From assembly GCA_009692015.1 (NCBI GenBank), contig SIAB01000005.1:1-37937 (forward strand): a DNA stretch of 37,937 bases, written 5' to 3'. Positions 3,943-17,138 of the stretch are shown here, piece after piece. The translations under genes were made by a program, and so were the position numbers. Origin of the DNA: Phycisphaerales bacterium (GTDB taxonomy: Bacteria > Planctomycetota > Phycisphaerae > Phycisphaerales > SM1A02). The stretch's first letter is position 1; each line of letters begins with the position of its first letter. Below the pieces are notes generated by a model. That model searched no databases, was not told the origin of the DNA, and saw only the letters and a list, made by a program, of their open reading frames with translations.

Positions 3943-4725
3943 TCAGATTCGATCGCGGATCGTCCAGAGATCTGTGAAGAGTGGCGTGAAGAGCGTGGCG
4001 CGCAGATAGGCAGCGCCAGGGGATCCGCCAGTTCCCAAACGGGCTCCAATCGTTCGCTCGACCATCTTCACATGGCGATAGCGCCACTCTTGAATCCCCT
4101 CATCGAGGTCAACCAGCAGTTCGCAAAGCATGCGATCACTGGGGTGTTTGTGATAAATGTTCAGCAGCGTCTCTTGCAGAACGGGATCGCTCTCTGGAAG
4201 TGCTTGCAGCGGAGCTGCCAGGAGCGCATCCGGAATCGTGTGTCCGCCGCTCTTGAGCCGACGCAGGAAGGACTGCCAGAGTGTGAACTCGCCGAGGCGG
4301 GCGACGAGTGTGGCGCGCTCTGGGCTTCCCTCTGGATAGCGCTCGACAGCAGCCGCCTTGCGATTGCCAACGATGAATTCGAATTCGCGAAACTGCGCCG
4401 ACTGGAATCCACTGGCATTGGAAAGCAGTGATCGGAAGGAGAGGAACGAGACGGGGCTCATCGTTTCGAGTACATCGATTTGTCCAACCATGGTCTTGAG
4501 GATGGTCAGCATGCGCTTGAGCGTGGCCAGCGCGGTGGGATCGTCGGCAGCTTCGAGCGCCCGCTGCAGGAACAGCGCCTCGTGAATCTGCTGCTTGAAC
4601 CAGAGTTCGTAGACCTGATGAATGATGATGAAGAGCGTCTCGTCGTGATCGCGTCCGCCCGAAAGTGGGTGCTGAAGCGAGAGCAGTTCGGGCACGCGCA
4701 GATATTGGCCGTAGGTCATTGTCAC
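3943..4725 (-). CDS. kynA: Tryptophan 2,3-dioxygenase
   Basis: Haem enzyme that opens the indole ring of L-tryptophan to N-formylkynurenine, the first step of the kynurenine pathway. The 260-residue product has the family hallmarks: HDETLFIIIHQVYELWFKQ at about 27-45, SFRSLLSNASGFQSAQFRE at about 95-113, RHVKMVERTIG (haem-ligand region) at about 216-226 and GTGGSPGAAYLR, where the GTGGS motif recognises substrate. Length fits bacterial TDOs. Its GTG start overlaps the TGA of the upstream ABC exporter (GTGA, 4722-4725), so translation is probably coupled; an ATG two codons later (4719) is an alternative start. No kynU or kynB is visible nearby. Function is confident; why it is paired with an exporter is unknown. 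Confidence 0.93.
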   Translation of the reverse strand: MTMTYGQYLRVPELLSLQHPLSGGRDHDETLFIIIHQVYELWFKQQIHEALFLQRALEAADDPTALATLKRMLTILKTMVGQIDVLETMSPVSFLSFRSLLSNASGFQSAQFREFEFIVGNRKAAAVERYPEGSPERATLVARLGEFTLWQSFLRRLKSGGHTIPDALLAAPLQALPESDPVLQETLLNIYHKHPSDRMLCELLVDLDEGIQEWRYRHVKMVERTIGARLGTGGSPGAAYLRATLFTPLFTDLWTIRDRI

Positions 4726-6695
4726 GGCGGCGAGGATAGAGGCTGACCAGCGATCACCTTGGGCGGCGGCGGAACCGCAGTCTGCATCAGCACCATGTTC
4801 TGATACTTCTCACTGGCGACCATCAGGTGGGCATGACTTCCCGCCGCAGTGATTTCACCCTTCTCAAGCACCAAAATCAAGTCGGCGTGTTGGATGGTGC
4901 TCAGTCGGTGGGCGATCACGAATGTGGTGCGATCCTGCACCAAAGTGAAGAGCGCCGACTGAATGAGCCGCTCGCTCTGCGAGTCGAGGCTGCTGGTGGC
5001 TTCGTCGAGGATGAGAATCCGCGGATCGGCCAGGATCGCCCGAGCGATGGCGAGCCGTTGGCGCTGTCCACCCGAGAGCCGCACGCCGCGCTCGCCAATA
5101 CGCGTGTCGAGGCCCTGGGGAAGTTGATCGATGAACTCGAGCGCATTGGCAAGTTCTGCAGCGCGCCGCACGCGCGCTGGCAGTGCCGCGCGGTCGCCAT
5201 AGCGGATGTTGTCTGCCACGGTGCCGTCAAAGAGAAACACATCCTGTTCGACAATTCCCAGTGCGCCGCGCCATGAGTCGAGGGTGATGTCACGCAGATT
5301 GCGGCCATCGACTGTGATCGATCCGTGGGTGGCATCAAAGAATCGGGCAACCAAATTGCAAAGCGTGGTCTTTCCACTGCCCGATGGACCGACCAGCGCG
5401 ATGGTCTGCCCAGCACGGGCATCGAATGAAATGTTTCGGAGCACATCGTCAAGTGCGCCGGGGTATCGATAGGCGACATCCCGAAAGCCAACATCGCCCA
5501 CGATCTCGCGCTTGTGCAAGCGGATGGCACTCGGATGGTCGGGCATCTCCGGCTTCTCGCCGAGCAAGTCGAGAATGCGGTCCAACCCCGCCAGATTCGC
5601 TTGGAATGCTGTGGCGCTCGACGCCAGCATCTGAATGGGGATGAGCAGCATCATCACATAGGTCAGAAAGAGCACCAGATCGCCGGCCGTGAGCGTTCCG
5701 CGCAGCACCTGCGTGCCGCCATACCAAAGCAGTGCGGCCGATGCCACGGGAATGAAGAGCGCCCACGCCAGGTCGATGCCGCGCGACCACCACCAGACGA
5801 GGAGTTCCTGTCTGGCCATCAAGTGACTGCCCTCGGTGTAGCGCAATGACTCGGTGCGCGATCGCCCGAAGCCGCGCACCACGCGCATTCCACCAAAGAC
5901 CTCGGTGGCATGGGCATCGATGCCATCGCGGGTGACCTTGATGTCGCGGTACATCGGACGGATTCGTCCGATCCAGGTGCGGTGGGTGAGCACGATCACC
6001 GGCAGCAGCACCAGCGCGCCGAGCAAGAGTCTCCAATCTGTGATGGCCAGTACCGCCAGACTGCCGACCAGTTGGATGAGCGCTCGCCAAGGGTTGTAGA
6101 GCATGCTGAAGACGAGATCTCCAACGCCACCACCATCTTCGCGCAGCGTGGCCACGAATCCGCCGGTGCGCATCTGTTGAATGCGCGCCAGGGGCAAGCG
6201 CATGGCCTGCGAAAAGACCAATCGCCGCACCCGATTCTGCACGCGCTTGACTGTGCGCGTCGCGAGCCAGCGACCAATGAGTCCGAAGAAGACAGCAACA
6301 AAAGCAATCACAACAATCGCGATCGCGAGTACAGCCAGCAATTCGCTGGGCGATTTGGGAAGCGACTGCGCGTTTGGGATCCACCGCGCGAGTGCTGCGG
6401 GCAGCGGCAGCCCCGAGAAGACATTGTCAATCGCAATCTTGGTTGCAGCCGGGGGGAGCAGCTCGAGGATCGCGGCAATCGATGCGCAGAAGAGGGCGAC
6501 GAGCACACTGCGCCAGTCGCGGCGGACAAATCGGGCGAAGGCGCGCAGCAGCGGTCCGATTGCCCGCGAGCGTCTGGCACTCACTTCGGTTCCATGGCGG
6601 GTGACCAGAGTTTGTTCGGAGCGACTCTTCTTTCGGCGCAATTCGCGGGCGATCTGATATTCGTTGAATCGATGTCGGCTCGACCAGACTGGCAT
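4722..6695 (-). CDS. ABC exporter, fused permease and ATPase (MsbA type)
   Basis: 657-residue half-transporter with one membrane domain and one ATPase domain, working as a homodimer in the inner membrane. About 45 basic residues precede six predicted TM helices (about 60-385). The ATPase shows Walker A GPSGSGKTT, Q-loop VEQDVFLFDGT, signature LSGGQRQR, Walker B ILILDEATSSLD and H-loop AHRLS. MsbA-type proteins flip lipid A-core or other amphiphiles, and other LPS-related genes lie in this window, but substrate cannot be assigned from sequence. The stop overlaps the kynA start. The ATG at 6695 lies 6 nt after a TACCAT hexamer, which supports this start. A proline-rich tail (AVPPPPKV) ends the protein. 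Confidence 0.9.
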   Translation of the reverse strand: MPVWSSRHRFNEYQIARELRRKKSRSEQTLVTRHGTEVSARRSRAIGPLLRAFARFVRRDWRSVLVALFCASIAAILELLPPAATKIAIDNVFSGLPLPAALARWIPNAQSLPKSPSELLAVLAIAIVVIAFVAVFFGLIGRWLATRTVKRVQNRVRRLVFSQAMRLPLARIQQMRTGGFVATLREDGGGVGDLVFSMLYNPWRALIQLVGSLAVLAITDWRLLLGALVLLPVIVLTHRTWIGRIRPMYRDIKVTRDGIDAHATEVFGGMRVVRGFGRSRTESLRYTEGSHLMARQELLVWWWSRGIDLAWALFIPVASAALLWYGGTQVLRGTLTAGDLVLFLTYVMMLLIPIQMLASSATAFQANLAGLDRILDLLGEKPEMPDHPSAIRLHKREIVGDVGFRDVAYRYPGALDDVLRNISFDARAGQTIALVGPSGSGKTTLCNLVARFFDATHGSITVDGRNLRDITLDSWRGALGIVEQDVFLFDGTVADNIRYGDRAALPARVRRAAELANALEFIDQLPQGLDTRIGERGVRLSGGQRQRLAIARAILADPRILILDEATSSLDSQSERLIQSALFTLVQDRTTFVIAHRLSTIQHADLILVLEKGEITAAGSHAHLMVASEKYQNMVLMQTAVPPPPKVIAGQPLSSPP

Positions 6696-6725: not shown

Positions 6726-7919
6726 ATGACACTCCTCAACTGCCTCGGCCGTGGATCGCTCGCACTCGCCGTGACCCTTGCGCTCGGCGCTTCACCACTT
6801 CCGCAGAACGCGCCAGAATCCAAGAAGCAAACCCAGACGAAGCAAACCCAGCAGAAGGAAGCCAAGCCGAAGGAAACCCAGCAGAAGGAAGCCAAGCCGA
6901 AGCGCGGCCCTGGTCCGCGATTTGGAATTGTGGATCCGCCGAAGAAGACCGCGGGTGCGGTGCGCATCGCGGCCTACAACCTGGCGAACATGTTCGATCA
7001 TGTCGATGATCCGACGCTTGACAACAAGTGGGAAGAGGCGAAGTTGCAAATCAAGGATGATCGCGCCAAGGCACTCGCCAAGGCGATCGTGCGCTTGGAT
7101 GCCGATGTGCTCTTTCTCGAGGAGATCGAGTCGAAGGAGGCACTGATCTGGTTTCGAGATACCTATCTCAAGGACTCGGGTTACACCTTTGTGGAGAGTC
7201 TTGATGCTGGCTACTACCGCGGTGTCGAGCAGTCGGTGCTCTCACGATTTCCCCTGAAGAACGCGCGGGTTTTTTTGGATGCCAAGTTGCGTGGCGAAGC
7301 GCCCGCTGCCGCAGAGCCTGGCGCAACCCCGAATGATCCAACGAAATTCCAGCGTAGCCCGCTGGCGGTCGACATCGAATTCCCAGGTGGTTACAGCCTC
7401 ACGGCGTATGCGATCCATCACAAGGCTGGTGGCAAGGACTTCGAGGGTCATCGCGCGGCTGAGGCAGAGAAGATTCTCGAGTTCGTTCAAGCAGACCTCG
7501 CCAAGGATCCCGATCGAAATCTGGTGATCGTTGGTGACTTCAACACCACGCCGCTCTCAGACATCGCCAAGGCGTATCGCGCCACCGGGCTGGCGACTGG
7601 CTATGACTATCGTCCCGCCGCAGATCAACCCAAGAAGGGCGAGAAGATGCCCGATGCAGTCTGGGACGCGCTGCGCGAGAAGTACACCACGCACGAGTCG
7701 GGCCGGCCCATCGATTACATCTTGATGTCTGCGGGCTTCGCCAAAGATGTTGTCCCGGGATCATTCTTTGTGCTCTCGACATTGCATCCCGGCGACGACT
7801 ACGACTGGAAGACTGACGAGCCGCCGGCGGGATACGCCAGCGATCACTATCCAATCGCGCTTGAATTCATGCCGAAGGATGCTGGGAAGCCAGCGACAAA
7901 AGACGCATCGCCTCATTGA
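6726..7919 (+). CDS. Secreted endonuclease/exonuclease/phosphatase-fold protein
   Basis: 397 residues. A signal peptide (about 1-27, hydrophobic [12 protein letters not shown]) is followed by a low-complexity Lys/Gln/Glu linker (about 32-60, repeats of [10 protein letters not shown]) and then an EEP domain: [24 protein letters not shown] with the metal-binding Glu, [20 protein letters not shown] with catalytic Asp and Asn, DYILMSAGF, and [10 protein letters not shown] with the catalytic His pair. EEP enzymes cleave phosphodiesters in DNA, lipids or sugar phosphates with Mg2+; a signal peptide points to an extracytoplasmic nuclease or phosphodiesterase. The last 53 nt overlap trpB on the opposite strand. 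The linker comes from a 30-bp tandem duplication. Confidence 0.85.
6841..6900 (+). repeat. 30-bp tandem duplication within the EEP gene linker
   Basis: Two adjacent 30-bp copies (6841-6870 and 6871-6900) differ at one base. They encode the repeated QQKEAKPK element of the charged linker, and a partial earlier copy (AAACCCAGACGAAGC) lies just upstream. A multiple of three, so it changes linker length without breaking the frame. Confidence 0.85.
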
Positions 7920-9084
7920 CATCCTTGTCGCCGCGACCTGAGATGTTGATCACCAGCAGCGCCGACTTGGGCATCGATCGAGCCATCTCGACCGCGTGCC
8001 AGACAGCGTGGGCAGTCTCGAGCGCGGGGATGATCCCCTCATGCTCTGCCAGGAGTTGAAACCCCGCTAGTGCCTGCGCGTCTGTGACTGCGCAGTACTT
8101 CACCCGCCCCAAGTCGCGCCAGTAGGAATGCTCGGGACCGACCCCTGGATAATCCAGTCCAGCGCTGCATGAGTGCACGGCGGCTGTCTGTCCCTCGAGA
8201 GTTTGCAGAACATACGAGTAGGAGCCGTGGAGCACGCCGGGCGATCCAAAGGAAAGCGGCGCAGCATGGTCGCCCGGTGAATTGCCGCGCCCACCGGCCT
8301 CGACTCCCACGAGCGCAACGGCGGGGTCATTGATAAAGGGGGCGAAGATTCCAGCTGCATTCGATCCGCCGCCAACGCAGGCGACGATGGCGCTCGGCAG
8401 CATCCCAAACTGCTCGAGGGATTGCGCCCGGCACTCGCGACCGATGACGCTTTGAAAATCCCGCACCATGGTTGGGAAGGGGTGCGGTCCCACCACGCTT
8501 CCAAGAATGTAATGGGTGTCGCCCACGGAACCCATCCAGTCGCGCATCGCTTGGTTGGTTGCATCCTTGAGGGTGCACGATCCTGAGGTCACTTCGTTGA
8601 CCTTTGCCCCGAGCAGTTTCATGCGAAAGACATTCAAGGACTGGCGGCGAATGTCCTCAGATCCCATATAGATCTCGCAGGGAATTCCGTAGTGCGCGCA
8701 AGCCGTCGCGGTGGCGACACCGTGCTGTCCGGCACCGGTCTCGGCGATGACCCGCTTCTTTCCCATGCGCTTGGCGAGCAGTCCTTGACCGATGGTGTTG
8801 TTGATCTTGTGTGCGCCGGTGTGGGCGAGGTCCTCGCGCTTGAGGGCAATGCGCGCGCCGCCGGCGAAGCGCGACAGTCGCAGGGCATCGGTGAGTGGTG
8901 TCGCCCGACCCACGAAGTGTTTGAGCAGCGCATCCACTTCAGCGGTGAAAGATGGGTCGGCGCGGGCAGCGATGTAGGCACTCTCCAGTTCTTCGAGAGC
9001 CTGCACAAGTGTCTCTGGGACATAGCGCCCGCCAAAGGCGCCGAAGCGATCGGGGAGTTGTGTTGGGGTCGCGACGGGACTCAT
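7867..9084 (-). CDS. trpB: Tryptophan synthase beta chain
   Basis: PLP enzyme that joins indole and L-serine into L-tryptophan; normally works with TrpA, which is not in this window. 405 residues, the usual TrpB1 length. Seen motifs: [13 protein letters not shown] near the N-terminus, HTGAHKINN with the PLP lysine K93, AETGAGQHG with the catalytic Glu (115), phosphate-binding GGGSNAAG, and C-terminal ISGRGDKD. It is the last gene of the minus-strand run, 7 nt after the pssA stop. Its last 17 codons overlap the 3' end of the EEP gene antisense. Placement away from other trp genes is ordinary in many phyla. Confidence 0.96.
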
Positions 9085-9091
9085 CGGGATC

Positions 9092-10018
9092 TCATCGCAG
9101 ATTCGTCGGTGAACGCTCGTCTCGCGCGGCAGCGGCGCCGCGTGACTGAAATCTGTGCATCAATCTTCGCACCGGTCCCGAGAGCGCGTAGATCGTGAAG
9201 CACGCGGCGAGCCCAACTTGGAACCACCACACCGCAAAAGCGAGCGGCAGCATCATCCAAGCGACGAATGCGAAGGGCTGTCGTCCGCGCAGATAGCGAT
9301 TGACGATGTGGGCGTAGGGAAGCCGTGAGATCATCGCCGCCGAGACCAAGAGGGTGATGAGTGGCAGTGCGAGCGCCGATGTTCGCTCGAAGCCATCCGG
9401 TGGAACTTCGTGAAAGCGAACCAGCGCCAGGTGTTGATGCAGCAATGTCAAACTCGCCACGGCGCCGGCAGCGCCTGGCGAGGGCAATCCGCGGAAAAAT
9501 CTATGGTCAGCTTCGTCTGTTGAGGTCGTTTCAGCATTGAACCGCGCCAAGCGCAGCGCCGTGCAGCAGATGTAAAACGCGGCGATCCCCCACATGATCT
9601 TTCCGTAGGCGTTGTCTGCATCTGGACCGAGAATTCCGGTGTAGTGGTCTGGACCACCGTAGTAGTAACTCACCAGGCGCAGGACCATGTAGGCCGGTGC
9701 CACCCCGAAGGTGACCATGTCCGCCATCGAATCGAGTTGCGCGCCGAACTCGCTGGCCGAGCGGGTAAGTCGGGCAGCAAATCCGTCGAGTGCATCGAAG
9801 AGCATGCCAATGAAAACCAGCGTTCCCGCGATTGTCAGGGTGCTCCATCCCAGGACAGTGCTTGGTCCGATCGGCTTGCTCGCATAGTGAATCGCGGCGA
9901 AACCGCAGACCAGATTTCCCAGAGTAAGCAGGGTCGGTACCACAGAAATGGAGAGGAGTCGCCGCCGATGGCGGGCGATATCGACTTCTTCTGGTTGCGG
10001 AGAGCGTGGTGAGTCCAT
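9092..10018 (-). CDS. pssA: CDP-diacylglycerol-serine O-phosphatidyltransferase
   Basis: Integral membrane enzyme making phosphatidylserine, the precursor of phosphatidylethanolamine. The CDP-alcohol phosphotransferase signature DGx2ARx8Gx3Dx3D is perfect: D78, G79, A82, R83, G92, D96, D100. 308 residues with about seven TM segments; the [16 protein letters not shown] start and [15 protein letters not shown] segment are typical of the type II PssA seen in Bacillus and many other phyla. Its ATG directly abuts the TAG of the upstream lipoprotein gene, and trpB begins 7 nt after its stop. Being in one coupled run with an AsmA-like protein hints at a link between phospholipid synthesis and transport. 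Confidence 0.93.
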
Positions 10019-10906
10019 CTATGGTTCTGGTGCGGCGGGCGATTCTACGGGCGGGGAATCCGGAAAGTGCCGGGCGGAAACAAGCGGGATCACCACCACG
10101 ATGGGGTGCAGGCGAAGTGCCGAGGATTCCGTGTTGCCATTGGTCAAGAGCAATTCGCCCAGAGTCGGCGGCGGCGAGACGGGTGGTCCCGCCGATGGTC
10201 CGCGCGTGGACGCCGCGTCACCCATTCCAGGCGGGAGTCCGGTGATGAGCAGCGCACTGCCCCTCGGAAGTGCCGCAAAGATCCCAGCCGAAGAAAAGAG
10301 TTCTCGCTGGGTGGCCCGGGCACCGGGAACGCTCCCACCACCCAGAAAGGCCGGCAGAATCTCGATGTCGGTTGCCGCTCCCGTTTCAAGCGGCACGGTC
10401 CAACCGCGCAGCAGCAGTTGGAGCGTGCCGGCCGCGAGCCTGCGCGTGCTGCCGTCGACCACGACTGCCAAGGATCCACGAATCTGGAGCGATCCAAGCT
10501 GGTTCCAATTCGTTGCTTGTCCAAGCCATACCCGGACATTCGCGTAGGTGCCGCCGAGTTCGTCCAGTGCCGTGGGAAGGTCGGCGTAGGCAATTTGCGC
10601 GACGCGAATTCCGTTGCGCGCCAAGGCTTCCTGCGACTGCCGTGAGGTCTCCGTGAACGGGTGTGCTTGAAAAAAATCCGAAATCACCGCGGGCGCATCG
10701 ATGACCTGCCACTGAATGATCGCAATGCCGTCGGTCACCCCATCGTCAACCGGCAGCGTGACGCGCTTGAGTGGCCCGCTCGAGATGGGCTGCGACGGGT
10801 CGTTGGCGGATCCATCGGCGCTGCCGGCAAGCGGCTCGGAGAGTGCACACCCGCCCACGACTGCCGATGCCACAGATGCCATGACGATCGTCGCGATGAT
10901 CTTCAT
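10019..10906 (-). CDS. Putative lipoprotein of unknown function
   Basis: 295 residues from ATG 10906. The track starts at 10990, but 10906 is chosen because it forms an ATGA overlap with the TGA of the LOG gene and because the protein then opens with a lipoprotein signal: MKIIATIVMASVASAVVGGC, lipobox VGGC with Cys20. The mature part has a Ser/Pro-rich start, a region ending in LLTNGNTESSALRLHPIVVV and a Pro-rich tail. Stretches such as DGIAIIQWQVIDAP and LGGTYANVRVWLGQATNW look conserved in style, but I recognise no family. Probably lies in the periplasm, attached to a membrane. The gene abuts pssA with no gap. Confidence 0.75.
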   Translation of the reverse strand: MKIIATIVMASVASAVVGGCALSEPLAGSADGSANDPSQPISSGPLKRVTLPVDDGVTDGIAIIQWQVIDAPAVISDFFQAHPFTETSRQSQEALARNGIRVAQIAYADLPTALDELGGTYANVRVWLGQATNWNQLGSLQIRGSLAVVVDGSTRRLAAGTLQLLLRGWTVPLETGAATDIEILPAFLGGGSVPGARATQRELFSSAGIFAALPRGSALLITGLPPGMGDAASTRGPSAGPPVSPPPTLGELLLTNGNTESSALRLHPIVVVIPLVSARHFPDSPPVESPAAPEP

Positions 10907-11979
10907 TTCGCGGCGATCTGTGGCATCTCGTTGATCCGATCGATCAGGCGACGAACCAGTCCTATGTACTTTCGATTGTGACGGAACCACAGACGCGGCG
11001 TGCCAGCAGGAGCGTCGTCGCCATCGAGGTCATTGCCCTGCTCGAAACTGCCGCTGGCGAGCAAGCCGCCGAAATCGCGCTCGAAAACCGCGCAGGCATT
11101 CGGTGGCAGCGGCGCGTCAAGTCGGATGACAAAGCGATCGTCCACATATCGACTCGATCGATAACGCAAATAGAACTGAGTGACAATGTTGGCGGCGTCG
11201 ATTGGCGACGCAGCGAGGCGATAGAGGCTCTCGTCCTCTGGACTGATCCATCCCGTGGCATGCATCGAATCTCGCACGAAGCGATCCCAGTTTTTCCAGT
11301 AGCCCAGTGGTTGCCCATCGCCGCTGTGCCCCTCGACGAGCACGATTGGGATGATGGCGTTGCGACCAGTTTGCACCAGAGTGAGCGCTTCGAAGAGTTC
11401 ATCTTGTGTTCCGAATCCACCCGGAAATGCCGCGACGGCATCTGCGTTTCCCATGAATGCCAGCTTGCGGGTGAAGAAGTAGCGAAAAGTGAGCAACTTG
11501 GGATCGTTGGCGATCACCGGATTTGGCTTGTCTTCAAAGGGCAGGCGAATGCTCAATCCAAAGGCGTGTTCGGGAGTCGGTCCCTCGATGCCGGCCTGCA
11601 TGATCCCGGGACCCGCGCCGGTGATCGCCATCCAGCCGCGCGAGGCGAGCAGCCTTGAAAACGCGACGGCCGCCACATAATCCGGATGCTCGCGCGGTGT
11701 TCGCGCGCTGCCGAAGACGGCGATCTTGCGCAGCGCGCGATAGCGGTTGAACATGGTGAATCCCGCGCGCATTTCTCGCAGTGCCTGCCGCGCGAGTCGA
11801 AGTTCGCCCGTGGTGAGTCCATCGTCGAAGAGGCGCAGCGAAGTTGCCACCATCTCGGCGACCAGCAATCGGCGCTGGGCATGACCCGGGTCGCTAGTGC
11901 CGGTGGGTGCGGCGAGGTCGACGATTGCATCGATGGCGCTGCGGATGTGCGGCGCGAGGCGGGTGTTTCGATCGTTCAT
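10903..11979 (-). CDS. LOG-family protein (Rossmann fold, TIGR00730-like)
   Basis: 358 residues. The LOG domain sits at about 83-265, with VFGSAR at the first Rossmann strand, ITGAGPGIMQAG, the TRK active-site element (170-172) and the signature PGGFGTQDE (186-194). LOG proteins are nucleoside-5'-monophosphate phosphoribohydrolases that release cytokinin-like bases, or nucleotide-binding relatives such as PpnN. This longer form has about 80 extra residues in front and a C-terminal part of about 90 residues (YVDDRFVIRLDAPL...). Both ends overlap neighbours by ATGA (with the AsmA-like gene upstream and the lipoprotein downstream). Substrate is not predictable. Confidence 0.88.
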   Translation of the reverse strand: MNDRNTRLAPHIRSAIDAIVDLAAPTGTSDPGHAQRRLLVAEMVATSLRLFDDGLTTGELRLARQALREMRAGFTMFNRYRALRKIAVFGSARTPREHPDYVAAVAFSRLLASRGWMAITGAGPGIMQAGIEGPTPEHAFGLSIRLPFEDKPNPVIANDPKLLTFRYFFTRKLAFMGNADAVAAFPGGFGTQDELFEALTLVQTGRNAIIPIVLVEGHSGDGQPLGYWKNWDRFVRDSMHATGWISPEDESLYRLAASPIDAANIVTQFYLRYRSSRYVDDRFVIRLDAPLPPNACAVFERDFGGLLASGSFEQGNDLDGDDAPAGTPRLWFRHNRKYIGLVRRLIDRINEMPQIAAK

Positions 11980-14900
11980 TGTGAAGCGCTCGCAATCGGT
12001 CCTGCGCGATTCAGTTCGGGAGCTGGGATGAGTCCTGGAAGTGGAGCGATCGAGCCCCGTGGTTCTTGAAGCGTTCCGCGCACATCGATTTGGAAGAGCT
12101 GATTGGTAACGCCTCCTAGCAGATCGCTGAGGATGGGAAGCGTGCCGCGATTTCTCAAGCGCAGCGCGAGTTCAGTTGTCTCTGTGTTCAGCCAGCCGTC
12201 GCCAGAGAGCACGACGTCGCGGCAGGCAATCTTGAACTCGTCGAAGTGCAGGCGATCCTGATCAATCGTGAACTCGAAATCACCCTCGGTGACCACTGTG
12301 TCGAGCGCCAGGCTCAATTGGGCGACTTGCAGGATGGCCAGCGCGATCGGCAGCCGCGCGAGTTCGGCCTCCTTGATCGATGCCGAACCTCTCCCACGGC
12401 GGGATCCAACGCCGCTGGCATCTCCGCCCAGACCGATTCGCGCGCTCACCAGACCGGGTTCTCCCGCTGGAGTCGGTAGCGATGGATCGACCCCGTCGCG
12501 GGGCAGCGCCAGCGCAGCGATTGGCACCCCCATGAGCGTGAAATCCATTTCGAACCGATGGGGCGCCGCCAGCTCAACGCGCGCATCGCCCGCGATCGAA
12601 CCGGTCCCCATCGAGCCGTGAAATCGTTCGATGAAGAACTCTGGGTTCGTTTCGTGCTTGTGAAGCATGGTCGAGAAATTGTTGATCTCCCGCCCCGCAA
12701 GAATTGCCCGACCGTTGGTGACTTCGCCGACCAACGATGTGGCCTCAGCGTCGCTGGCGATCGTCAGTCCCACATTGGCGCTGAACTGCGACATATGTGG
12801 GCTCATCGCCAGCGACGCTCCATGGATTGAAATGTCGCTGGCGACATCGGTGCGAACCAATTCCCCGCGCGGGCTGAGCCGGATGGTCGTCGCCGCGCGC
12901 AGAATGTCCGGGCAGGAAAAACCGATTTGGGTTAGGGGATCGCGCGCCGCCGCTGGCAGCGCTGCAATGACATCGGCGCCTGTTCCGAGCGCCAGGAGAT
13001 CAAAAGAGAACTCGCCCGCGTTGATCGCTCCGGCGCCATCGCTTGCGAGCCATCCGCATCCATCGATCGAGCCACCTGGGAAACTCGCTCGAAAGGGCAA
13101 GATGCGGAGCGCCAGGTCGGTGCTGTGGATGTGCAAAGGAGTTGTGAATCCAAGCGAGAGCCGCGCCGCATCACTGCCGAGCGAGAGGTCGTTGATCCAC
13201 CCGTCAAGTTCGAAGGAGTCTCCGCCGCGACCCGGCTGCATGGAACAGGAAAATTGCGCGTCATAGCGACCCTCTGGTTTGAACTCTTGCATGAACGACT
13301 TCGCCGCGTGTTCGCCGAGCAACTTGACCAACTCAGCGATGAGCGGGCCGTGAATCAGCCCGTTCTGGATCGACCCACTGAGATCGAGCTGCCCAGTCGC
13401 CTCGCCGTAGCTCCCGTCGATGCAGATGGCGGTGGGCAAACCACCAACCGGGCTGAGTGTTCCCGTGAGCGCATCGCAGCGCACCACCTGCTGCTCGACA
13501 TGCAGTGTTCCCGAGTCGAAGCGGGCCTCGATTGGGCCGCCCCCGAAGGTGAGTCCGAATGTTCGCGGCGTCACCGCGAGTCGACTCTCGACCGGACCGC
13601 CCGCGCGTGGAGTCGTCAAGACGATGTCAGCGTCGAATTGACCAGTCGGTTGATAGCGATCCCACAGTGCGGCGGCATTCTCGCGCTCGTCGAAGGGAAG
13701 GAGGTTGATCGCATAATCCGCGAGTTCCATGGCGCGAAGTTTGATGGTGAGGTCGGTGGCCGTTCCATCGAGCGAGACCTGACCGATGGCTTCAATCTCG
13801 CCGCCCCGGCGAAATCCAGAAAAGGAGTTCACGACCACGGTGTCATCTGTCAAACGAAATGAACCAGTGCAGTCATCGAGCCCAAAGCCGACGGGCCAAC
13901 TGAGACCCTCATCGGCGATGATCTGCCCAGTCGCGACAGTCGGATGGATCGATCCGCCGCGCAGCTCGATGTCGCAACCAACTGCGAGTTCGCCATCCGC
14001 GGCGATGCTGATCTGGCCGCGGAGTGAAAAAATGCCGCGCGGGTCGAGCTGTGAGAGCGTTGTTCCGCCACGCGAAAGTCGCGCGCCCGGCCAGCCCACC
14101 TGACTCGCGGTTGCATCGGGCGGAATCGCCAAGAAGAGGAGCGGATTCAACTGATCGTCAGTCAGGGTGAACGCGAGTTGGGTGGGATCCCTGCCGACCT
14201 GTTGCGTATCGCCGAGCTGAATGTGTCCGTTGAATAATCCCTCGGCGCCATCGAGGGTGCGAAAGGGGATCCCCACTCCGAAGTCCAGGCGTTCGTCTCG
14301 AATGGTGATGACGCCGCTGCTGGCCCTGATCGGATAGGGGAAGGTGGTGGTGAGGATGTCGGCATGCATCAAGCGGATCTCCCCGGCGACATCGACCTTC
14401 GCCCCTTCAGTCTCGGCGCGCGAGACTCGAAACTCGAAAGCCAGCCGACCGCCGGGCGTGAATGCGCCATGGTCGATGATTCGTTGCAGTTGCCCAGCGC
14501 GCGTGGCAAGTTCAGCAATTTTCGACGCTTCCTCATTGCCCTGGTCGGATTGGGTCATCACCGTCAATCGGCTCTCGCAGCTCTTCAATTCGGTCACGGC
14601 ATCGGCGACTTGGGCTGCATCGAAAAGCACTCCGGCCGATTGCAGCGAGCGAAAACCCTCTTGCCAGAAGAGCCCCGCGAGAAGGTCGCGCTCCCGCGCA
14701 GGAAAACTGTCGAAGAGTGTCTGGTCAATGGAGGCAGAGGGTGCGGCGATCACGAGGGTCACCCCAGCGTTCGATCCGATGTTGGTGATCGCTCCATGAA
14801 TGGTCACACCTTCGCCGTCGGGTCCCACACCGGTCAGCGAAGTGATGTCGGCACGCGATCCAGAAAAAAGCACGGTGGATCGAATGTCGTGCACTGGGTA

Positions 14901-16307
14901 GGCGAAGTCCTCGAACGCACCGCGACCATCGGTGATGGACAGGGTGCCTGAGGTGGTCACCGGCATCGACGCGAACGAACCGTCGGCAGCCTCGACGCTG
15001 GTAGCCCGTGACGCGGTCACCTGCAATGAAAACTCAAGTTCGGTCACTTGGAAGGTCTTCATGAATTCGGCGGCCAAGCGGGGCACTTCGATGGCGGTTT
15101 CCTGCGCCGTTTGTCCAAGCGAAAACTTTGGAACCATCAGGCTCAGATCGAAGGGTGCGAAGGCGCGGATCTTGTCGATCCACTTGGAACGGTCGCCCCA
15201 CTCGAACGCCTCGATCTTCAGGGTTGCGAGGTCCATCGTCAGCGTGGCACGAACGGGGAGCGTCGCCACGCGACCATCTGCCGCAGTATTGACGAGTTCA
15301 AAGTCAAGATCGCGAAAGTCGAGTTGTGATCCAGTGACTTCAACCGTTCCCGATCGGAGTTGCACTTGAAGAAAGCCGCGCGCAGGTGAAATGGTCTGGT
15401 TCTCGTATCGCACCCACTCCTCAAATCCACCAGCCGGAAGTGTCGCCCGAAAGTCTGCGAGTTCAACAATCCCATGCACTTCGGTCCCCGGGCTCATGCG
15501 CAGCCGCGCCGACTTCACTGTTCCTGTTGCCTCAGCTTGGGCAACCAGCGCGCGAAAATTCCGCGGCATAATCAGACTCAGGTCTTGGCCAATCGAGATT
15601 CCGGCCACGGCGAGATCGAACCCAAGCGTGGTCTGGTTGAACGAGCCCGACACCTGGATCGGTCCCTCGACTTGATTGAACGAGACGAGCGAAAGCGACT
15701 GGTCGTCGGGCGAAGGTCGCACGGCGGCCGTTGCGAGAAAACTCATGAGTTCGACGGGGCCGCCGTGGTCGAGGCGCTGGATCGATACGGCGATGCTGTT
15801 CAAAGTCGCTCGCTCCACAATCACCGGATTCTCCGCGGGCGCCCCGGCCTGCTTTCTGTCAAGCGTCTGAAAGTTGTAGAGGCTGCCGCCGCTGGGATCT
15901 TCAACGGCGGTCAACTGAAGGCCATCCACCACAAGGCTTCGGATGGTCGTGTTGCCCCAGACAAGTGAGAACACGGCCACCTCGATCTGCACGCGATCGA
16001 TGTGGGCGATTTCGCTGCCTGGCCCAGACCAGTTTGGGGTGCTCAGGCGAACGCCACGGATCTCAGCCGACCCCCAACCCGTCCAGCGAAACGAATCGAG
16101 AGTCACAATGCCGCCCGCGGTGTCGCTCAAACGACTGGCAACGAACGAGCCAACGATTCGCGGGTTCAAGAGCACCACCAGCGCCGTCGCAACGACGAGC
16201 ATGACGGCACAGACTGCGATGGCGCGCGACTTTCCGAGGCGGCTCCCACGCGCAGTGGTCGCGGGTGTGTTCGACCGCGGTGTGATTGGTGGGGCTTGCG
16301 CTGGCAT
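11976..16307 (-). CDS. Very large AsmA-like membrane-anchored periplasmic protein
   Basis: 1443 residues from ATG 16307. The track runs to 16901, but that extension is the antisense of the SDR gene and is not protein-like. A Thr/Pro/Arg-rich cytoplasmic start precedes one TM helix (about 27-48, AVCAVMLVVATALVVLL), then about 1400 residues of beta-rich sequence. The start of this part (TLDSFRWTGWGSAEIRGVRL, SLVWGNTTIRSLVVDGLQL) and the end (DRLHFDEFKIACRDVVLSGD, NRGTLPILSDLLGG) match AsmA/TamB/YhdP style. Such proteins are thought to form a hydrophobic groove bridging inner and outer membranes for phospholipid movement. First gene of a coupled run leading to LOG, lipoprotein, pssA and trpB. 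Family call is from motif style. Confidence 0.8.
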   Translation of the reverse strand: MPAQAPPITPRSNTPATTARGSRLGKSRAIAVCAVMLVVATALVVLLNPRIVGSFVASRLSDTAGGIVTLDSFRWTGWGSAEIRGVRLSTPNWSGPGSEIAHIDRVQIEVAVFSLVWGNTTIRSLVVDGLQLTAVEDPSGGSLYNFQTLDRKQAGAPAENPVIVERATLNSIAVSIQRLDHGGPVELMSFLATAAVRPSPDDQSLSLVSFNQVEGPIQVSGSFNQTTLGFDLAVAGISIGQDLSLIMPRNFRALVAQAEATGTVKSARLRMSPGTEVHGIVELADFRATLPAGGFEEWVRYENQTISPARGFLQVQLRSGTVEVTGSQLDFRDLDFELVNTAADGRVATLPVRATLTMDLATLKIEAFEWGDRSKWIDKIRAFAPFDLSLMVPKFSLGQTAQETAIEVPRLAAEFMKTFQVTELEFSLQVTASRATSVEAADGSFASMPVTTSGTLSITDGRGAFEDFAYPVHDIRSTVLFSGSRADITSLTGVGPDGEGVTIHGAITNIGSNAGVTLVIAAPSASIDQTLFDSFPARERDLLAGLFWQEGFRSLQSAGVLFDAAQVADAVTELKSCESRLTVMTQSDQGNEEASKIAELATRAGQLQRIIDHGAFTPGGRLAFEFRVSRAETEGAKVDVAGEIRLMHADILTTTFPYPIRASSGVITIRDERLDFGVGIPFRTLDGAEGLFNGHIQLGDTQQVGRDPTQLAFTLTDDQLNPLLFLAIPPDATASQVGWPGARLSRGGTTLSQLDPRGIFSLRGQISIAADGELAVGCDIELRGGSIHPTVATGQIIADEGLSWPVGFGLDDCTGSFRLTDDTVVVNSFSGFRRGGEIEAIGQVSLDGTATDLTIKLRAMELADYAINLLPFDERENAAALWDRYQPTGQFDADIVLTTPRAGGPVESRLAVTPRTFGLTFGGGPIEARFDSGTLHVEQQVVRCDALTGTLSPVGGLPTAICIDGSYGEATGQLDLSGSIQNGLIHGPLIAELVKLLGEHAAKSFMQEFKPEGRYDAQFSCSMQPGRGGDSFELDGWINDLSLGSDAARLSLGFTTPLHIHSTDLALRILPFRASFPGGSIDGCGWLASDGAGAINAGEFSFDLLALGTGADVIAALPAAARDPLTQIGFSCPDILRAATTIRLSPRGELVRTDVASDISIHGASLAMSPHMSQFSANVGLTIASDAEATSLVGEVTNGRAILAGREINNFSTMLHKHETNPEFFIERFHGSMGTGSIAGDARVELAAPHRFEMDFTLMGVPIAALALPRDGVDPSLPTPAGEPGLVSARIGLGGDASGVGSRRGRGSASIKEAELARLPIALAILQVAQLSLALDTVVTEGDFEFTIDQDRLHFDEFKIACRDVVLSGDGWLNTETTELALRLRNRGTLPILSDLLGGVTNQLFQIDVRGTLQEPRGSIAPLPGLIPAPELNRAGPIASASQ

Positions 16308-16340: not shown

Positions 16341-17138
16341 ATGAATGGTGAGCGAGGCAACAGTTCCAGCGAGAAGTCTGGCCGTCGCCCGCGGACGCTG
16401 GTGACTGGGGCAGCCCTGCGAGTTGGACTCGCCACGGCGCTCGAGTTCGCGTCGCGGGGACATGCCATCGTGCTTGCGGTGCGCCGGATCGACGATCGCT
16501 CTCAGGCCGCTCTTCTCGCGGTGCAACAGGCAGCGCGCGCGGCTGGACACGCAGACGCGCCCATTGAAGTGCACGCCGCTGATTTGGATGATGTGGTCGC
16601 GGTGCAGGCGCTGGGGGTCGCGGTCGCGCAGGGGCCGCTCGATGTTGTTGTGCACTGCGCAGCGCGGTATCGGGCGCAGCCGATTGGCTCGATCGAGCCA
16701 GATCAAGCGCTCAGTGATTATCGAGTGAATGCGCTCGCGCCGCTCCTGTTGACACAGGCGCTCGCGCCACGGCTCGCCAAGAGCATCCTTCCAGCCGGGG
16801 GCGCCGTGGTGTGCTTCACCGACATGCATGTGGAGGGACGGCTCTACAGCTCGCACGCCGCATACTTTGCATCGAAGGGAGCAGTGAGCGCGCTGGTTCA
16901 AGCGATGGCAGTCGAACTCGCGCCGCTTGTTCGCGTGAATGGGATCGCGCCTGGAGTTGTGGCGTGGCCAGAGGGGGCCGACGAGGAATTCAAGAAGCGA
17001 TACATCGCAAAGACCCCGCTCGGGCGCGCGGGGAGTCCAGACGAAGCCGCCAAGTGTGCGGCATGGTTGGCGCTCGATGCCTCATTCCTGACGGGCGTGG
17101 TTATTCGACTCGATGGCGGGCGCTGGTTGAAGGGGTGA
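16341..17138 (+). CDS. Short-chain dehydrogenase, pteridine-reductase-like
   Basis: 265 residues from ATG 16341 (the track start at 16002 is antisense to the AsmA-like gene). Cofactor site LVTGAALRVG (20-29) is the TGxxxRxG variant typical of NADPH-dependent pteridine reductases (PTR1, FolM) rather than TGxxxGIG. The usual catalytic Ser is replaced by Asp161 (CFTDMH), with Y175 and K179 in YFASK, the Asp-Tyr-Lys arrangement of PTR1/FolM. VVHCAARY, VNGIAPGVV and the C-terminal VIRLDGGRWL complete the fold. Likely reduces a dihydropterin such as dihydrofolate or dihydromonapterin. Diverges from the AsmA-like gene with 33 nt between. A TAATAC box 7 nt before the ATG may be its -10. Confidence 0.8.
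   Translation: MNGERGNSSSEKSGRRPRTLVTGAALRVGLATALEFASRGHAIVLAVRRIDDRSQAALLAVQQAARAAGHADAPIEVHAADLDDVVAVQALGVAVAQGPLDVVVHCAARYRAQPIGSIEPDQALSDYRVNALAPLLLTQALAPRLAKSILPAGGAVVCFTDMHVEGRLYSSHAAYFASKGAVSALVQAMAVELAPLVRVNGIAPGVVAWPEGADEEFKKRYIAKTPLGRAGSPDEAAKCAAWLALDASFLTGVVIRLDGGRWLKG

What the first reader, a model, noticed from the sequence alone, without database searches (positions are those of the whole stretch)
9092..16307. AsmA-like giant and phosphatidylserine synthase in one coupled operon
Five minus-strand genes run with ATGA overlaps or gaps of 0-7 nt: AsmA-like (1443 aa), LOG, lipoprotein, pssA, trpB. Established knowledge: AsmA/TamB/YhdP proteins are implicated in moving phospholipids between inner and outer membranes, and PssA makes the precursor of the main zwitterionic phospholipid. 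An operon pairing the two, plus an unknown lipoprotein, suggests a synthesis-and-export unit. The lipoprotein may be an outer-membrane partner of the bridge protein.
Basis: partly seen in the sequence, partly recalled or inferred. Interest (0 to 1): 0.6.

Follow-up and report, generated by a model that had tools for sequence, protein, structure and literature searches.

The report
Lipid bridge, lipoprotein and lipid-synthase operon
In the planctomycete order Phycisphaerales, the gene for a giant protein that probably carries lipids between the two cell membranes is kept for long evolutionary times beside genes for a nucleotide-cleaving enzyme, a previously unrecognised membrane-anchored protein and a phospholipid-making enzyme, which suggests that the four act as one envelope-lipid unit.

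Summary
In detail: AsmA-like (1443 aa), LOG, lipoprotein, pssA and trpB lie on the minus strand with junctions of -4, -4, 0 and +7 nt. The proposed refutation (order not conserved) failed. AsmA-LOG-lipoprotein-pssA is kept in 16 of 18 assessable genera of this family, where the AsmA protein is mostly 20-30% identical. Outside the family it behaves as two couples, AsmA-LOG and lipoprotein-pssA; the second stays together even where it lies far from the first. Two genera fuse LOG and lipoprotein into one open frame that keeps the lipobox cysteine. The giant models as long amphipathic beta-strands behind one N-terminal transmembrane helix and is YhdP/DUF748/AsmA-like. TamB is absent from all 61 genomes checked, and 59 of 61 carry Omp85. 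The lipoprotein matches no Pfam, NCBIfam or PDB family or fold and is essentially confined to the order. Against a strict "phosphatidylserine synthesis-and-export" reading, all six genomes of a sister family lack PssA and PS decarboxylase yet keep AsmA-LOG-lipoprotein. Best reading: a phospholipid bridge with a lineage-specific lipoprotein partner, analogous to YdbH-YnbE, tied to phospholipid synthesis. Transport itself was not tested.

The parts
11976..16307 (-). AsmA/YhdP-like giant (1443 aa): one N-terminal hydrophobic helix (residues 24-57), then an almost all-beta periplasmic region
   Evidence: homologs in 60/61 relatives and 285/298 genomes of the class
10903..11979 (-). Type-II LOG-like phosphoribohydrolase (358 aa) with the motif PGGFGTQDE
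   Evidence: PF03641; catalytic R171 K172 T191 D193 E194 invariant in 30 orthologs, matching the mutated residues of CgLOGII (PMC5379747); nearest solved structures are type-II LOGs
10019..10906 (-). Predicted lipoprotein of unknown family (295 aa), Cys20 lipobox; invariant G60, W127, W134, R167, W169
   Evidence: No Pfam or NCBIfam match, no PDB sequence or fold match; model pLDDT 83, pTM 0.77; alignment of 37 homologs
9092..10018 (-). pssA, CDP-diacylglycerol-serine O-phosphatidyltransferase (308 aa)
   Evidence: PF01066, TIGR00473 100.7 bits against 107; complete CDP-alcohol motif at residue 78
7867..9084 (-). trpB, downstream passenger (not part of the conserved core)
   Evidence: TIGR00263 588.7/392 bits; follows pssA in g1, g2, g3, g6, g7, g14, g16, g17 and g18; gltX stands there in five other genera looked at

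Best explanation
The operon encodes an envelope phospholipid-delivery unit. [quoted passage not shown] The lipoprotein, a family found essentially only in Phycisphaerales, works with it at a membrane end of that path and is coupled both to the bridge and to phospholipid synthesis by PssA. LOG is a nucleoside-monophosphate phosphoribohydrolase of the cytoplasm with an intact active site; its fusion to the lipoprotein in two genera suggests it acts at the membrane next to it. Shown here: gene order and its conservation, family membership, motifs, predicted beta architecture, strand amphipathicity, fusion frames. Inferred: lipid cargo, direction, physical contact between the proteins, and any role of LOG.
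For: Quartet order kept in 16 of 18 assessable genera of the family at mostly 20-30% AsmA identity. Lipoprotein directly upstream of pssA, away from AsmA, in five of five pssA-bearing genomes of f5, in G051 (f4) and in G027 (f1). LOG-lipoprotein fusion in G019 and G023 with no stop between them and the lipobox Cys kept. AlphaFold model of residues 244-1443: pLDDT 84, 53% strand, 50 strands of six or more residues; mean alternation of hydrophobicity 2.35 against 1.47 +/- 0.15 in shuffles, 0 of 1000 as high; the only Foldseek hits below 1e-3 are ApoB100, a lipid-binding amphipathic beta belt. YhdP (PF13116) matches 16 of 27 orthologs, DUF748 21 of 27. TamB 0/61, Omp85 in 59/61: a diderm lineage without TAM, leaving this giant as the obvious bridge candidate. 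Precedents: YhdP/TamB/YdbH as phospholipid transporters (PMC8593681); YdbH with the OM lipoprotein YnbE (PMC12977461, PMC11784454).
Against: No cargo, binding or localisation data. Families f2 (six genomes) and f3 (one) keep the trio without PssA or PSD, so PS is not a required cargo. In f4-g22 and f6, AsmA and pssA are both present without any of these adjacencies. The window protein itself is below the Pfam cut-offs. Foldseek TM-scores are low (at most 0.19 on the query for hits below 1e-3) and pTM is 0.55, so groove geometry was not measured. In G032 AsmA and lipoprotein are adjacent without LOG, so LOG is not indispensable.
Confidence: 0.5

Rival explanations
1. The AsmA-like protein is a lipid bridge, but the operon is a co-expression cluster of growth genes; PssA, LOG and lipoprotein have no physical or functional link to the bridge.
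For: trpB or gltX, ordinary growth genes, follow pssA; in f4-g22 and f6 all adjacencies are absent although AsmA and pssA exist; outside the order the AsmA homologs have other neighbours.
Against: The quartet outlasts trpB in the same genomes; the lipoprotein-pssA couple and the AsmA-LOG couple each persist after being separated; LOG-lipoprotein fusions in two genera.
Confidence: 0.3
2. LOG and the lipoprotein form a transmembrane sensor or control unit: the periplasmic lipoprotein domain reads envelope-lipid status and LOG alters a nucleotide pool in the cytoplasm that sets phospholipid synthesis or bridge activity.
For: Fusion of a LOG domain to the hydrophobic lipobox segment and lipoprotein domain in G019 and G023; LOG catalytic residues invariant; LOG and lipoprotein adjacent even in loci where no AsmA was detected within the flank held, e.g. 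L096, L100, L107, L108, L109.
Against: The lipobox Cys is kept in both fusions, so LspA could cleave the two parts; no sensor fold was recognised; five f5 genomes and G051 place the lipoprotein away from LOG.
Confidence: 0.15
3. The AsmA-like protein carries something other than phospholipids, for example lipoproteins, as proposed for the AsmA-like GspN, or helps outer-membrane protein assembly.
For: A weak GspN match in the window protein (TIGR04411, 7.5e-5, cut-off not met) and T2SSN in one ortholog; a paper titled for GspN transporting lipoproteins exists (PMC12802150, listed, not read).
Against: The protein is 1443 aa with a long all-beta region and YhdP/DUF748 affinity, whereas GspN is short (280-position model); the pssA-lipoprotein linkage points to phospholipid.
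Confidence: 0.08

Closest known systems
YhdP / TamB / YdbH (AsmA-like proteins of E. coli)
   Same: One N-terminal membrane helix, long beta-rich periplasmic region with one hydrophobic face; sequence affinity to PF13116 YhdP and PF05359 DUF748 in orthologs.
   Different: Window protein below every Pfam cut-off; encoded with LOG, a new lipoprotein and pssA; no TamB found in these genomes.
YdbH-YnbE (AsmA-like protein plus outer-membrane lipoprotein)
   Same: A large AsmA-like protein paired with a lipoprotein.
   Different: The lipoprotein here is 295 aa with a folded mixed alpha/beta domain; from memory, YnbE is a very small lipoprotein. No homology was tested; analogy only.
Type-II LOG (CgLOGII, TtLOGII)
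   Same: PGGxGTxxE motif, Phe-Phe pair and all residues whose mutation abolished or nearly abolished CgLOGII activity (PMC5379747).
   Different: C-terminal extension of about 90 conserved residues; gene context with AsmA; fused to a lipoprotein in two genera. Chlamydial and cyanobacterial relatives lack that context.
PssA (CDP-DAG-serine phosphatidyltransferase, CDP-alcohol type)
   Same: Motif and fold family.
   Different: Slightly below the TIGR00473 cut-off; encoded in an envelope operon, while psd is at a different locus.

Membership tests
AsmA-like clan (YhdP/AsmA/DUF748) | Pfam curated score reached | tested here: not met
   Window protein: DUF748 35.0/50, AsmA 20.3/29.8. Ortholog L078 passes both (55.2, 31.4), so membership is by homology, not by score of this protein.
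AsmA-like clan (YhdP/AsmA/DUF748) | Single N-terminal membrane helix followed by a large periplasmic region | tested here: met
   Strong hydrophobic segment at 24-57 (mean 3.03); two marginal ones at 1316-1340.
AsmA-like clan (YhdP/AsmA/DUF748) | Long beta region with a hydrophobic groove | tested here: inconclusive
   53% strand, pLDDT 84, strongly amphipathic strands; groove geometry not measurable, pTM 0.55.
AsmA-like clan (YhdP/AsmA/DUF748) | Transfers phospholipid between inner and outer membrane | not testable with these tools
   Needs genetics or biochemistry.
TamB | PF04357 domain | tested here: not met
   0 of 61 genomes match; one ortholog in 27 reaches only 0.0011.
Type-II LOG phosphoribohydrolase | PGGxGTxxE motif plus catalytic Arg/Lys/Thr/Asp/Glu | tested here: met
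   R171 K172 T191 D193 E194 invariant across 30 orthologs, equal to R155 K156 T175 D177 E178 of CgLOGII.
Type-II LOG phosphoribohydrolase | Hexamer, cleavage of AMP-type nucleotides | not testable with these tools
   TIGR00730 score 74.8 is below its cut-off 96.35.
PssA (TIGR00473) | Curated score and CDP-alcohol motif | tested here: inconclusive
   Score 100.7 against 107 (not met); motif complete; homologs in G033, G023, G008 pass the cut-off.
Bacterial lipoprotein | Hydrophobic signal ending in a lipobox Cys | tested here: met
   Cys20 invariant in 37 homologs; hydrophobic segment 1-23. Lipidation and final membrane not testable here.

The most novel reading that the evidence does not exclude
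LOG and the lipoprotein form a membrane-spanning unit that links nucleotide chemistry at the inner membrane (all CDP-diacylglycerol-dependent synthases, PssA included, release CMP, a possible LOG substrate) to the loading of an AsmA-type lipid bridge, so that new phospholipid is handed from synthesis to export. To my knowledge this would be the first genetic unit joining phospholipid synthesis to an intermembrane bridge.
Probability: 0.12. Interest if true: 0.8.

Novelty: new variant of a known kind. Interest (0 to 1): 0.52.

Why it matters
How bacteria move phospholipids to the outer membrane, and whether export is tied to synthesis, is an open question studied mostly in Proteobacteria with redundant AsmA-like proteins. 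Here is a diderm lineage in which TamB is absent, one large AsmA-like protein is near universal, and its gene travels with a lipoprotein of no known family and, through it, with pssA. That gives a named candidate partner and a natural comparison (families with and without PssA) for asking how a lipid bridge is loaded and unloaded.

Tried and rejected
PDB sequence searches with the AsmA and lipoprotein profiles found no relative. Fold search of the lipoprotein gave no match (best E 0.08, TM below 0.2); secretin entries among the weak hits were not taken as evidence. My first view that pssA joined the operon only in one family was dropped after searches showed lipoprotein-pssA pairs in f4 and f5. 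The idea that the window genome lacks an outer membrane (no Omp85 in the own genome) was dropped: 59 of 61 relatives have Omp85 and the own assembly is 86% complete. LptD was not found in the own genome and was left uninterpreted for the same reason. Whether the LOG-lipoprotein fusion happened once or twice: unresolved in the LOG tree. Sequencing error as the cause of the fusions: thought unlikely, because in L048 the lipoprotein part has no ATG or GTG start upstream of the lipobox (only an in-frame TTG inside the hydrophobic stretch); an indel cannot be fully excluded, and L071 has an in-frame GTG that could start a short signal. A complex prediction (AsmA with lipoprotein) was not possible with the tools.
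Full report
OBSERVATION. A short-chain dehydrogenase starts divergently at 16341. The giant has one N-terminal hydrophobic helix (24-57) and sub-threshold matches to DUF748 and AsmA. The lipoprotein matches nothing in Pfam or NCBIfam, nor do its homologs as a set.

CONSERVATION WITHIN THE FAMILY. I searched 61 genomes and read the neighbourhoods. In the window's family (f1, 19 genera in the sample) AsmA-LOG-lipoprotein-pssA occurs in that order in 16 of 18 assessable genera (g1-g9, g12-g14, g16-g19; g19 across a contig break within LOG). The exceptions: g10 (G027) splits it into AsmA-LOG and lipoprotein-pssA, and g15 (G032, 72% complete) has AsmA-lipoprotein-pssA without LOG; g11 could not be assessed. 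Outside the window's genus AsmA identity to the window is mostly 20-30%. The next gene downstream is trpB in about nine genera and gltX in g5, g8, g9, g13 and g10, so the quartet is the unit and trpB is not.

OUTSIDE THE FAMILY: TWO COUPLES. AsmA-LOG is adjacent in f2, f3, G051 (f4), and G044 and G056 (f5). The lipoprotein stands directly upstream of pssA in all five f5 genomes that have pssA (G040, G044, G048, G056, G060) and in G051, at loci away from AsmA; the f5 lipoproteins are divergent (21-48 bits) but all sit at the same place, with a lipobox-like start where the N-terminus is present. With some thousands of genes per genome, a homolog landing directly upstream of pssA by chance is of order 1 in several thousand per genome (my estimate). 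A scan of GTDB species genomes by LOG shows the LOG-lipoprotein pair in most Phycisphaerales loci, while chlamydial, cyanobacterial (Leptolyngbya) and verrucomicrobial LOG relatives lack it.

A NATURAL TEST OF THE PS HYPOTHESIS. All six f2 genomes, the one f3 genome and G052 lack PS decarboxylase, and their only TIGR00473 matches are about 40-residue motif hits, as expected of other CDP-alcohol enzymes. f2 and f3 nevertheless keep AsmA-LOG-lipoprotein. The trio therefore does not need PS or PE synthesis. pssA is an optional but recurrent partner, attached through the lipoprotein.

FUSIONS. In L048 (G019) and L071 (G023) LOG runs without a stop into the hydrophobic segment and lipoprotein domain...INRLNDTAAKSATTLLLFLLAASGALSAC... 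and ...INKLPVRVAAFLCCATLIAC.... A LOG domain is expected in the cytoplasm, so the fused chain must cross the inner membrane once, unless it is cut at the retained lipobox Cys. The LOG tree leaves the number of fusion events open.

STRUCTURE. Residues 244-1443 of the giant model at pLDDT 84, pTM 0.55, 53% strand. Fifty strands of six or more residues alternate in hydrophobicity far more than shuffles of the same strands (2.35 against 1.47 +/- 0.15; 0 of 1000); one face is rich in L, G, I, F, V, A and the other in R, S, D, T. Foldseek's only hits below 1e-3 are human ApoB100, a lipid-binding amphipathic beta structure; LptD follows at 5e-3. TM-scores are low, as may be expected for long flexible shapes, so I claim an amphipathic beta bridge and not a measured groove. 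Orthologs carry YhdP (16 of 27) and DUF748 (21 of 27) matches, and one passes the DUF748 and AsmA cut-offs. The lipoprotein models well (pLDDT 83) as a mixed alpha/beta domain with no PDB counterpart.

LINEAGE CONTEXT. The AsmA-like family is found in 285 of 298 genomes of the class (orthologs and paralogs not separated there), but outside the order its neighbours are different, and the lipoprotein is essentially order-specific (26 of 198 in the class, 24 of them in the order). TamB is absent in 61 of 61 genomes and Omp85 is present in 59 of 61, so these are diderms without a TAM. From the literature: YhdP, TamB and YdbH are redundant and essential for outer-membrane lipid homeostasis in E. 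coli (PMC8593681); YdbH works with the OM lipoprotein YnbE (PMC12977461, PMC11784454); TamB sits with mlaEFD in Negativicutes (PMC10665443). My literature searches returned no paper on an AsmA-LOG-lipoprotein-pssA cluster, within an open-access library only.

LOG. All five residues whose mutation abolished or nearly abolished CgLOGII activity (R155, K156, T175, D177, E178; PMC5379747) are invariant here. It is probably an active nucleotide phosphoribohydrolase. Why it accompanies a lipid bridge is unknown; CMP released by CDP-diacylglycerol-dependent synthases is a possible substrate (inference).

CONCLUSION. The mechanism (phospholipid bridge with a lipoprotein partner) is likely but untested; PS-specific synthesis-and-export coupling is weakened by f2 and f3; the outer-membrane placement of the lipoprotein is open.

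Noticed in passing
G037, G042, G046, G050, G054, G058 (f2), G038 (f3), G052 (f5): These Phycisphaerales genomes lack PS decarboxylase and any full-length pssA match, suggesting loss of PE synthesis in whole families.
   Followed up: partly
window 3943-6695, minus strand: An MsbA-like ABC transporter (4722-6695) overlaps by 4 nt (ATGA) a tryptophan 2,3-dioxygenase gene (3943-4725), near trpB; a tryptophan-degrading enzyme coupled to a lipid-flippase-like transporter is odd.
   Followed up: no
AsmA profile positions about 887-1003: f5 and f6 AsmA proteins lack a segment of about 120 residues present in f1, f2 and f4; the families with the longer giant are those with a clearly recognisable lipoprotein.
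   Followed up: partly
L251-L270 (other orders of the class): Outside Phycisphaerales the AsmA-like gene is preceded by a conserved membrane protein gene and a tilS-like gene, or followed by an MTA-phosphorylase-like gene, rather than LOG.
   Followed up: partly
L089 (G032): AsmA is followed directly by the lipoprotein gene, with LOG missing from between them and no full-length copy found in that 72% complete genome.
   Followed up: partly
L054, L286 (G027): A one-contig genome carries the quartet split into AsmA-LOG and lipoprotein-pssA-gltX, about 285 kb apart.
   Followed up: yes
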